From positions 1 to 57,839 of the forward strand of contig JAFTYG010000060.1 in NCBI GenBank assembly GCA_017461365.1: a stretch of 57,839 nt of DNA, in the 5' to 3' direction. The translations under genes were made by a program, and so were the position numbers. The DNA comes from Clostridia bacterium (lineage in GTDB: Bacteria > Bacillota > Clostridia > Oscillospirales > CAG-272). This document shows, in pieces, positions 47,299-48,021 of the stretch. Position 1 is the first letter of the stretch; every line of letters begins with the position of its first letter. The notes beneath the pieces are model-generated. The model did no database searches, had not been told where the DNA came from, and saw nothing but the letters and a program-made list of their open reading frames with translations.

Positions 47299-47328
47299 CC
47301 TACTTTTCTTTTGAAAAAGAAAAGTAGG
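47299..47328 (+). other. Stem-loop after the DUF4340 gene
   Basis: CCTACTTTTCTTTT and AAGAAAAGTAGG form a 12-bp stem around GAAA directly after the stop codon. There is no T-run after it (CAAAAGAAAAC), so it may be a mRNA 3' protection or pausing stem rather than a terminator. The tandem array starts right after it. Confidence 0.5.
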
Positions 47329-47338
47329 CAAAAGAAAA

Positions 47339-47618
47339 CACTGCATTGTCAGGACAATAAGAGACAAGCAAAAAACACTGCATTGTCAGGACAATAAGAG
47401 GCAAGCAAAAAGCACTGCATTGTTAATACAATAAGAGGCAAGCAAAAAGCACTGCATTGTCAGGACAATAAGAGGCAAGCAAAAAGCACTGCATTGTTAA
47501 TACAATAAGAGGCAAGCAAAAAGCACTGCATTGTTAATACAATAAGAGGCAAGCAAAAAACACTGCATTGTTAATACAATAAGAGGCAAGCAAAAAACAC
47601 TGCATTGTTAGTAAATTG
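47339..47618 (+). repeat. Tandem array of 37-bp units, seven full and one partial
   Basis: Unit starts are at 47339, 47376, 47413, 47450, 47487, 47524, 47561 and 47598, an exact 37-base period. Each begins CACTGCATTGT and ends GGCAAGCAAAAA-type sequence, and each contains a small hairpin with ATTGT and ACAAT arms. Two loop types occur: CAGG in units 1, 2 and 4, TAAT in 3, 5, 6 and 7. The eighth is broken (ATTGTTAGTAAATTG). There are no variable spacers, so it is not a CRISPR. Confidence 0.9.
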
Positions 47619-47619
47619 A

Positions 47620-47648
47620 AAAGCAGACTCGCACGAGTCTGCTTTTTG
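47620..47648 (+). terminator. Terminator after the tandem array
   Basis: AAGCAGACTCG pairs with CGAGTCTGCTT across a 2-base loop, then TTTTGTT. It ends any plus-strand transcript from the exporter operon or the array. Confidence 0.85.
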
Positions 47649-47707
47649 TTATAGGGAGATCAAGTCACCGTTTGACATTGAAAATTTTATAAAAAAATAA
47701 AAAAGAG

Positions 47708-47736
47708 TTGACAAAAAGTCAACACCGTGATACAAT
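47708..47736 (+). promoter_or_regulatory. Promoter of the antisense RNA
   Basis: TTGACA (47708-47713), 17-base spacer, TACAAT (47731-47736): a strong promoter with only a short transcript before the terminator below. Confidence 0.82.
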
Positions 47737-47742
47737 GGTAAC

Positions 47743-47829
47743 GGAGAGAACCGACAATGGTTGCTCCCAACGTAAATTGTTAAAGAATTAACCGCTCATG
47801 TTGGTTGCAGAGGCGGTTAATTCTTTTTA
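47743..47829 (+). ncRNA. Putative type I antitoxin RNA (RatA-like position)
   Basis: From the promoter at 47708-47736 to the hairpin AAAGAATTAACCGC / GCGGTTAATTCTTT (47782-47826, perfect 14-bp stem) with TTTTT, the transcript would be about 87 bases. It has no start codon with an RBS. Its 3' end overlaps the last 13 bases of the Hol_Tox-like toxin gene on the other strand and its body would pair with the toxin mRNA's 3' end. This is the arrangement of RatA with txpA. RNA data would be needed to confirm it. Confidence 0.65.
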
Positions 47830-47906
47830 TTATGATTGTCTATGTATGCCAAAAGAGATATTATAAGTCCTGCGAACAGGAACAACAGCTCCCAAGTAAC
47901 GTACAT
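47817..47906 (-). CDS. Hol_Tox-like small membrane toxin (29 residues)
   Basis: The peptide reads MYVTWELLFLFAGLI and ends with LLAYIDNHNKKN, so it has one transmembrane helix and the conserved Y-I-D-N-H-N-K-K tail of the putative holin-like toxin (Hol_Tox) family. Members are type I toxins that damage the membrane. The track-length reading from 48038 is longer but runs through an upstream promoter. ATG 47904-47906 lies eight bases after GGAGG; an ATG at 47910-47912 is only two bases from it. The leader can fold CTTCCC/GGGGAG to hide the RBS, as expected for type I toxins. Confidence 0.75.
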   Translation of the reverse strand: MYVTWELLFLFAGLIISLLAYIDNHNKKN

Positions 47907-47952
47907 CAGCATAACCTCCCCTCTTCGGGAAGGCAAAAAGTTGTCAGTCAAG

Positions 47953-47981
47953 ATAATAGAAAAAATTATTGCCGAAATCAA
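47953..47981 (-). promoter_or_regulatory. Promoter of the toxin gene
   Basis: Minus strand TTGATT (47976-47981), 17-base spacer, TATTAT (47953-47958). The leader is about 40 bases and contains the RBS hairpin. Confidence 0.65.
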
Positions 47982-48021
47982 CTCTTTTTGATAATAATAC
48001 AATTTATTTCTCAAAAAGCCC

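What the first reader, a model, noticed from the sequence alone, without database searches (positions are those of the whole stretch)
47708..47981. Compact type I toxin-antitoxin locus: Hol_Tox-like 29-residue peptide with a convergent antisense RNA
The minus-strand peptide ends in YIDNHNKK, the tail of the Hol_Tox toxin family, and its promoter (47953-47981), hidden RBS and single helix fit a type I toxin. On the plus strand a strong promoter (47708-47736) and a perfect 14-bp terminator define an RNA of about 87 bases that overlaps the toxin's 3' end. Gene finders miss both. The layout is that of txpA/RatA, but the pair sits on a chromosome beside an exporter operon with no prophage in sight.
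Basis: partly seen in the sequence, partly recalled or inferred. Interest (0 to 1): 0.78.

Follow-up and report, generated by a model that had tools for sequence, protein, structure and literature searches.

The report
Truncated copy of toxin–antitoxin RNA family
This stretch holds a gene for a 29-residue membrane peptide facing a small antisense RNA; it belongs to a multi-copy toxin–antitoxin family of gut bacteria, but this copy seems to have lost the toxin's own promoter and leader while keeping the antitoxin.

Summary
The pair is real. The peptide (47817-47906, -) passes Pfam's Hol_Tox cut-off (24.5 vs 23.3 bits). The + strand RNA (about 47743-47830) has an 11/12 promoter and a perfect 14-bp terminator and belongs to a conserved, covarying 85-nt RNA family without an Rfam match at gathering score. 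A covariance model finds 7 copies in this genome and 35 strong ones in 12 of 30 genomes of the genus; a capped pattern scan finds 114 stretches in gut Firmicutes. 94 of 121 scorable loci have a facing single-helix peptide. Two corrections. The proposed toxin promoter (47953-47981) is no better than chance, while the six other own-genome copies have 11-12/12 toxin promoters and a long leader that is missing here: this copy is probably a silent or weak toxin with an intact antitoxin. And in complete copies the toxin leader is a same-sense, co-evolving copy of the antitoxin's 5' end, so a read-through mRNA would close 5' to 3' as hok and aapA mRNAs do. 18 of 121 loci carry the RNA without a peptide, 12 of these with an 11-12/12 promoter. 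Nothing was measured.

The parts
47708..47736 (+). promoter of the antisense RNA, TTGACA-17-TACAAT, TG before the -10
   Evidence: 2 of 2000 shuffles reach 11/12; 11/12 or better in 72 of 82 relatives with a detected peptide
47743..47830 (+). antisense (antitoxin) RNA, about 87 nt, ends inferred from promoter and terminator
   Evidence: model R1 match 79.5 bits, a training sequence; conserved and covarying in 87 relatives
47743..47768 (+). 5' hairpin of the antisense RNA, conserved CCG...CGG core
   Evidence: fold; alignment and pair counts
47782..47826 (+). shared hairpin, perfect 14-bp stem, terminator for the antisense RNA; overlaps the last codons of the peptide
   Evidence: T tail favours the antisense direction in relatives
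47817..47906 (-). 29-aa Hol_Tox-type peptide
   Evidence: Pfam 24.5 vs 23.3 bits; subfamily median dN/dS 0.07
47914..47934 (-). predicted hairpin that hides the SD (GGGGAGG, 47921-47915)
   Evidence: fold; SD paired in 64 of 78 relatives
47953..47981 (-). weak promoter-like site proposed for the toxin, probably chance
   Evidence: 9/12; reached in 307 of 500 shuffles
47697..47723 (-). possible terminator in the toxin direction, built around the antisense -35 box
   Evidence: 19 of 115 relatives have one against 32 of 575 shuffles

Best explanation
The locus is a 5'-truncated member of a multi-copy type I toxin-antitoxin family of gut Firmicutes. In complete copies a strong promoter drives a toxin mRNA with a leader of about 100 nt: a 5' hairpin, a module matching the antitoxin's 5' end, and a hairpin hiding the SD. 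The shared hairpin terminates the antisense RNA well but looks like a poor terminator for the toxin, so the mRNA probably runs on through the complement of the antisense RNA. Its 5' module can then pair with its own 3' end (a closed form like those of hok and aapA), and about 85 nt are open to the antisense RNA. The antitoxin, a strongly promoted RNA of two hairpins, would bind that 3' part, blocking translation or leading to decay, in competition with the mRNA's own 5' end. The free peptide would be a small single-helix membrane toxin with a basic tail. In the window copy the native toxin promoter and leader are gone and the antisense RNA is intact, so the likely state is a silent or weakly expressed toxin with a working antitoxin. 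Shown from sequence: peptide family, RNA conservation and covariation, promoters, loss of the leader. Inferred: read-through, closure, antisense action, toxicity, silence of this copy.
For: Hol_Tox over cut-off; peptide selection, median dN/dS 0.07 in 72 usable of 105 pairs. Antisense RNA: 90.9% of cells paired, 106 double-changed cells against 46.4 shuffled, 0 of 500. Promoter 11/12 or better in 72 of 82 and 38 of 51 loci, against 14 of 2000 random 60-mers. 94 of 121 loci with a facing peptide. SD paired in 64 of 78. Toxin promoter 11/12 or better in 57 of 77. Leader/3'-end pairing: cognate -40.0 vs non-cognate -32.5 kcal/mol, better in 62 of 76; 164 double-changed cells against 73.4 shuffled, 0 of 500; 12 or more module bases in the closure in 51 of 57 folds. 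Poor T tail in the toxin direction (2.57 vs 5.98 of 8). Window copy: homology ends at 47940; no native promoter.
Against: No transcript, toxicity or repression was measured. Only 19 of 115 loci show a toxin-direction terminator beyond the antisense RNA, so read-through is uncertain. Swapping 3' ends between loci lowers the closure only from 20.9 to 17.9 paired bases and the cognate end wins in 40 of 57. In full-length folds the SD is paired in 44 of 57, in cut ones in 57 of 57, so closure does not clearly tighten SD hiding. The antisense 5' end shows no cognate preference for the SD region (40 of 76). Related loci are not independent, and gene conversion between the arms could mimic part of the co-variation. 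The window's peptide frame is intact, so the copy could still be expressed.
Confidence: 0.6

Rival explanations
1. The window copy is a complete, working txpA/RatA-like locus: the toxin is driven by the weak site at 47953-47981 and no long leader is needed.
For: Intact peptide frame and SD hairpin; a 9/12 promoter-like site at a suitable distance.
Against: 9/12 is expected by chance (307 of 500 shuffles) and the six other own-genome copies have 11-12/12 toxin promoters and a leader.
Confidence: 0.18
2. The peptide is not a toxin but a small membrane regulator like ComI, kept in check by the antisense RNA.
For: Sub-threshold match to ComI (19.3 vs cut-off 55 bits); ComI of Bacillus licheniformis is a 28-aa single-helix competence inhibitor (passages of PMC5503854).
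Against: The match is far below the ComI cut-off while the Hol_Tox cut-off is passed; dispersed and tandem copies, decayed copies and solo RNAs fit a selfish or addictive unit better. No toxicity data either way.
Confidence: 0.12
3. The matching arms are the ends of a small mobile element, and the leader/antitoxin likeness serves its movement, not RNA pairing.
For: Copies are dispersed and sometimes tandem; the segment is specific to this lineage next to a gene whose upstream homology starts at 48007 in a sister genome.
Against: Both promoters lie outside the arms and are conserved too; the arms keep fixed differences, with two nearly invariant G-U pairs; no recombinase among the ten proteins scanned beside the six other own-genome copies.
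Confidence: 0.08

Closest known systems
Hol_Tox peptides (Pfam PF16935) and ComI (NCBIfam NF052249)
   Same: Short single-helix peptide with basic tail; Hol_Tox cut-off passed
   Different: ComI cut-off not reached; only 8 of 25 representative peptides that face this RNA match Hol_Tox at E 0.01 or better
txpA/RatA and the other Bacillus subtilis type I pairs
   Same: Convergent toxin and antisense RNA overlapping at their 3' ends; RNase III decay described for txpA-RatA (passages of PMC6563280)
   Different: No Rfam family reached gathering score here; complete copies carry a leader that mirrors the antitoxin's 5' end. I recall no such module in txpA/RatA
Clostridioides difficile pairs such as CD2517.1-RCd8
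   Same: Convergent pairs in Clostridia, several per genome; hydrophobic toxin with charged tail (passages of PMC6563280 and PMC7699646)
   Different: Those toxins are described as without homology to known type I toxins and many lie in prophages; I did not compare their sequences
hok/Sok and aapA/IsoA
   Same: Full-length toxin mRNA closed by a 5'-3' long-distance interaction, with SD-hiding hairpins (passages of PMC6733600)
   Different: Unrelated hosts; here the closing 5' module is a same-sense likeness of the antitoxin's 5' end, and closure is only predicted

Membership tests
Hol_Tox (PF16935) | score above the curated cut-off | tested here: met
   24.5 vs 23.3 bits for the 29-aa frame; the 73-aa reading scores 21; a six-frame genome search scores the place 22.1, under the cut-off
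ComI (NF052249) | score above the curated cut-off | tested here: not met
   19.3 vs 55 bits
type I toxin-antitoxin | small hydrophobic peptide opposed by an antisense RNA gene | tested here: met
   conserved in 94 of 121 scorable loci
type I toxin-antitoxin | peptide is toxic and the RNA relieves it | not testable with these tools
   needs expression experiments
txpA/RatA-like convergent pair | convergent transcripts overlapping at their 3' ends | tested here: inconclusive
   layout met, but the toxin promoter of this copy is not supported
RNA families of Rfam 15 (RatA and Fst antitoxins recalled as such families) | match at gathering score | tested here: not met
   three tRNAs only in the window; only sub-threshold matches
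hok/aapA-like closed mRNA | 5' leader complementary to the mRNA's 3' end, co-varying, in complete copies | tested here: met
   56 relatives, 31 pairs, 85.3% formed against 77.8% shuffled; 51 of 57 folds
hok/aapA-like closed mRNA | the same feature in the window copy | tested here: not met
   leader missing upstream of 47940

The most novel reading that the evidence does not exclude
A widespread toxin-antitoxin family in which the antitoxin RNA is a same-sense mimic of the toxin mRNA's own 5' leader: it competes with that leader for the mRNA's 3' end, so the mRNA is held shut either by itself or by the antitoxin. Copies decay stepwise (leader lost as in this window, then peptide lost) into promoter-bearing solo antitoxin RNAs, some on mobile elements, that may protect the cell or the element against other copies.
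Probability: 0.3. Interest if true: 0.78.

Novelty: new variant of a known kind. Interest (0 to 1): 0.55.

Why it matters
It would add a multi-copy RNA antitoxin family, absent from Rfam 15 as far as tested, to Clostridia and Erysipelotrichia of animal guts. One conserved antitoxin scaffold faces many different small peptides, the mirrored leader/antitoxin module gives a testable closure mechanism in Gram-positives, and solo antitoxin RNAs raise the question of anti-addiction RNAs.

Tried and rejected
Bidirectional terminator: set aside, because T content after the shared stem is 2.57 of 8 in the toxin direction and 5.98 of 8 in the antisense direction (112 loci). Pairing of the antisense 5' end with the SD region: no cognate preference (-16.76 vs -16.39 kcal/mol, better in 40 of 76); with the distal leader in the antisense sense also none (-21.64 vs -21.56, 45 of 76). 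A U-turn (YUNR) motif is in 81 of 85 terminator loops, but no control was run and I give it no weight. Plasmids: no match; phages: four weak partial matches, none covering 80% of the query, which was a relative's locus (L014), not the window. PHROGs: one weak hit among 25 peptides. Literature: the listings showed no title or abstract start describing this RNA family; only passages of PMC6563280, PMC5503854, PMC7699646 and PMC6733600 were seen, so an earlier description elsewhere is possible.

Rows dropped. The tables behind hold R1 matches of 34.5 bits or more, copied by hand; left out were matches on the opposite strand of the same palindrome, one 5'-cut match in L129 and weaker matches. further drops one unlike match (L110, 5842) and exact duplicates; up to 17 'toxin' and 9 'degenerate' calls there were made by eye, and 9 loci too near the end of the fetched stretch were not scored. 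The pattern scan was capped; titles were shown for 80 of its 114 stretches. Searches used loci with a peptide and an SD-like motif found by script (78, 76 and 77 loci). One search used 57 loci with a toxin promoter of 10/12 or more and a GGYGGY leader motif; one search dropped one more (L179). R1 was trained on 17 of the 35 strong matches.

Full report
Observation. The minus strand at 47817-47906 encodes MYVTWELLFLFAGLIISLLAYIDNHNKKN. It reaches 24.5 bits against Pfam Hol_Tox, whose cut-off is 23.3; in a six-frame genome search the same place scores 22.1, just under it. NCBIfam ComI gives 19.3 bits against a cut-off of 55. The plus strand has TTGACA-17-TACAAT at 47708-47736; 2 of 2000 shuffles of 80 bp around it reach 11/12. 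A perfect 14-bp stem followed by T closes an RNA of about 87 nt. The SD GGGGAGG lies in a predicted hairpin. Among the neighbours are three ABC-exporter proteins, a 786-aa protein without a Pfam match and a sodium:neurotransmitter symporter; none of the eight proteins scanned looks mobile.

The family. A DNA search of the own genome found four clear copies besides the window. A covariance model of the antisense RNA, built on 17 sequences, raised this to seven copies of 47 bits or more (C41, C29, C14, C2, C45 = window, C16, C61), and found 35 such matches in 12 of 30 genomes of the genus; all 17 training sequences are among the 35. At E 1e-6 or better 7 of 245 genomes drawn from the class matched, the own one included. 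The viral collection gave four stretches. A relative's locus gave no match in plasmids and four weak partial ones in phages. In the window Rfam gave three tRNAs and nothing else at gathering score; searches of the locus and of five relatives' loci with looser limits gave only sub-threshold matches.

The RNA. On 87 non-redundant relatives two hairpins are 90.9% paired, with 106 double-changed cells against 46.4 in shuffles (0 of 500); slid versions are 36-55% paired. One terminator arm is also coding, so part of that constraint is shared. The antisense promoter scores 11/12 or more in 72 of 82 loci with a detected peptide and SD and in 38 of 51 others, against 14 of 2000 random 60-mers, some of which may fall on the element itself.

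The peptide. Of 130 distinct loci, 9 were too near the end of the fetched stretch. Of the 121 others, 94 have a facing single-helix peptide, 9 a degenerate one and 18 none (up to 26 of these calls by eye). Among 15 distinct coding sequences of the window's subfamily the median dN/dS over codons 2-25 is 0.07 (72 usable of 105 pairs). The peptides are diverse: 8 of 25 chosen representatives match Hol_Tox at E 0.01 or better. The SD is paired in the predicted leader fold of 64 of 78 loci.

The leader and the mirror module. In complete copies the toxin has its own promoter (57 of 77 loci at 11/12 or more, best site in the stretch), in most followed by a 5' hairpin and a module such as GGAGAGCACCATAACACGGTGGCGGTTGCTTCC. 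That module is a same-sense likeness of the antisense RNA's 5' end. The complement of the antisense 5' end pairs with the distal leader at -40.0 kcal/mol on average for cognate and -32.5 for non-cognate partners, better in 62 of 76. On 56 loci, 31 leader/3'-end pairs are 85.3% formed (77.8% shuffled), with 164 double-changed cells (73.4 shuffled; 0 of 500); slid versions are 39-52% paired. Two of the pairs are nearly always G-U (48 and 54 of 54), so the arms keep fixed differences and are not simply homogenised copies. In folds of 57 predicted full-length mRNAs, 51 place 12 or more module bases in this pairing; with 3' ends swapped between loci the mean falls from 20.9 to 17.9, and the cognate end is better in 40 of 57. 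In mRNAs cut at the shared hairpin the SD is paired in 57 of 57, in full-length ones in 44 of 57, so closure does not simply hide the SD better. Because the relation is same-sense, the antisense RNA and the mRNA's own 5' end would compete for one site.

Does the mRNA read through? The shared stem is followed by 2.57 T of 8 in the toxin direction and 5.98 in the antisense direction (112 loci), and 19 of 115 loci have a toxin-direction terminator-like hairpin around the antisense promoter, against 32 of 575 shuffles. The window has one at 47723-47707. This favours read-through but does not prove it.

The window copy. Homology to the relatives that carry the leader stops at about 47940. The six other own-genome copies have 11-12/12 toxin promoters and a leader; the window's best is 9/12, which 307 of 500 shuffles reach. 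In a sister genome, G029, the ends of the same two flanking genes are neighbours, with the symporter on the other strand; homology upstream of the symporter begins only at 48007, and no RNA match of 47 bits or more was found in that genome (best 33.2). So the segment looks specific to this lineage, and the proposed toxin promoter lies within it. I conclude that the window carries a 5'-truncated copy with an intact antitoxin. Another own-genome copy, C29, has stop codons in the peptide frame but keeps a 12/12 toxin promoter. The flanking genes of the six other copies that were scanned (ten proteins) are ordinary chromosomal ones; one 999-aa protein had no match.

Solo antitoxins. 18 of 121 loci have no detected peptide and no leader module, and their upstream stretches do not resemble those of toxin loci, except L181 (1403), a second RNA directly beside a complete locus; 12 of the 18 keep an 11-12/12 promoter, the others 8-10. 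One solo RNA lies between a serine recombinase and the N-terminal part of a P-type ATPase, identically in two viral contigs and a genus genome. Two other viral contigs carry the pair, one near an integrase and a tail gene (L209), one near a CI-like repressor (L211). The pattern scan selects on the RNA, so these fractions are not unbiased estimates.

Mechanism. My best reading is a type I toxin-antitoxin system whose complete members add a closed mRNA like those of hok and aapA3 (passages of PMC6733600). In Clostridioides difficile an antitoxin with three mismatches still acted on a non-cognate toxin (passages of PMC7699646), so partial cross-talk among copies is conceivable. Toxicity, repression and processing are untested.

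Noticed in passing
window 47335-47610: 37-bp tandem repeat, 7.5 copies, 94% matches, between the upstream operon and the locus.
   Followed up: partly
window 47299-47348: A palindrome (CTACTTTTCTTTTGAAAAAGAAAAGTAG...) that recurs across the own genome: a search with 47299-47640 gave 49 matches, nearly all to this first part, some near contig ends or in close series.
   Followed up: partly
L068 (G022:C34) and L069 (G022:C28): Clusters of the pair: four RNA copies within 4.3 kb and two within 1 kb.
   Followed up: partly
L208, L210, L161: Solo antisense RNA between a serine recombinase and the N-terminal part of a P-type ATPase gene, in two viral contigs and a genus genome.
   Followed up: partly
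L209 and L211: Viral contigs carrying the complete pair near an integrase and tail gene, or near a CI-like repressor.
   Followed up: partly
L067 near 4951 (G000:C61): Variant whose strongest SD precedes a different, overlapping frame about 35 nt upstream of the likely peptide start; possibly translational coupling.
   Followed up: no
L063 near 5012 (G000:C29): Own-genome copy with stop codons in the peptide frame but a 12/12 toxin promoter and an intact antisense RNA.
   Followed up: partly
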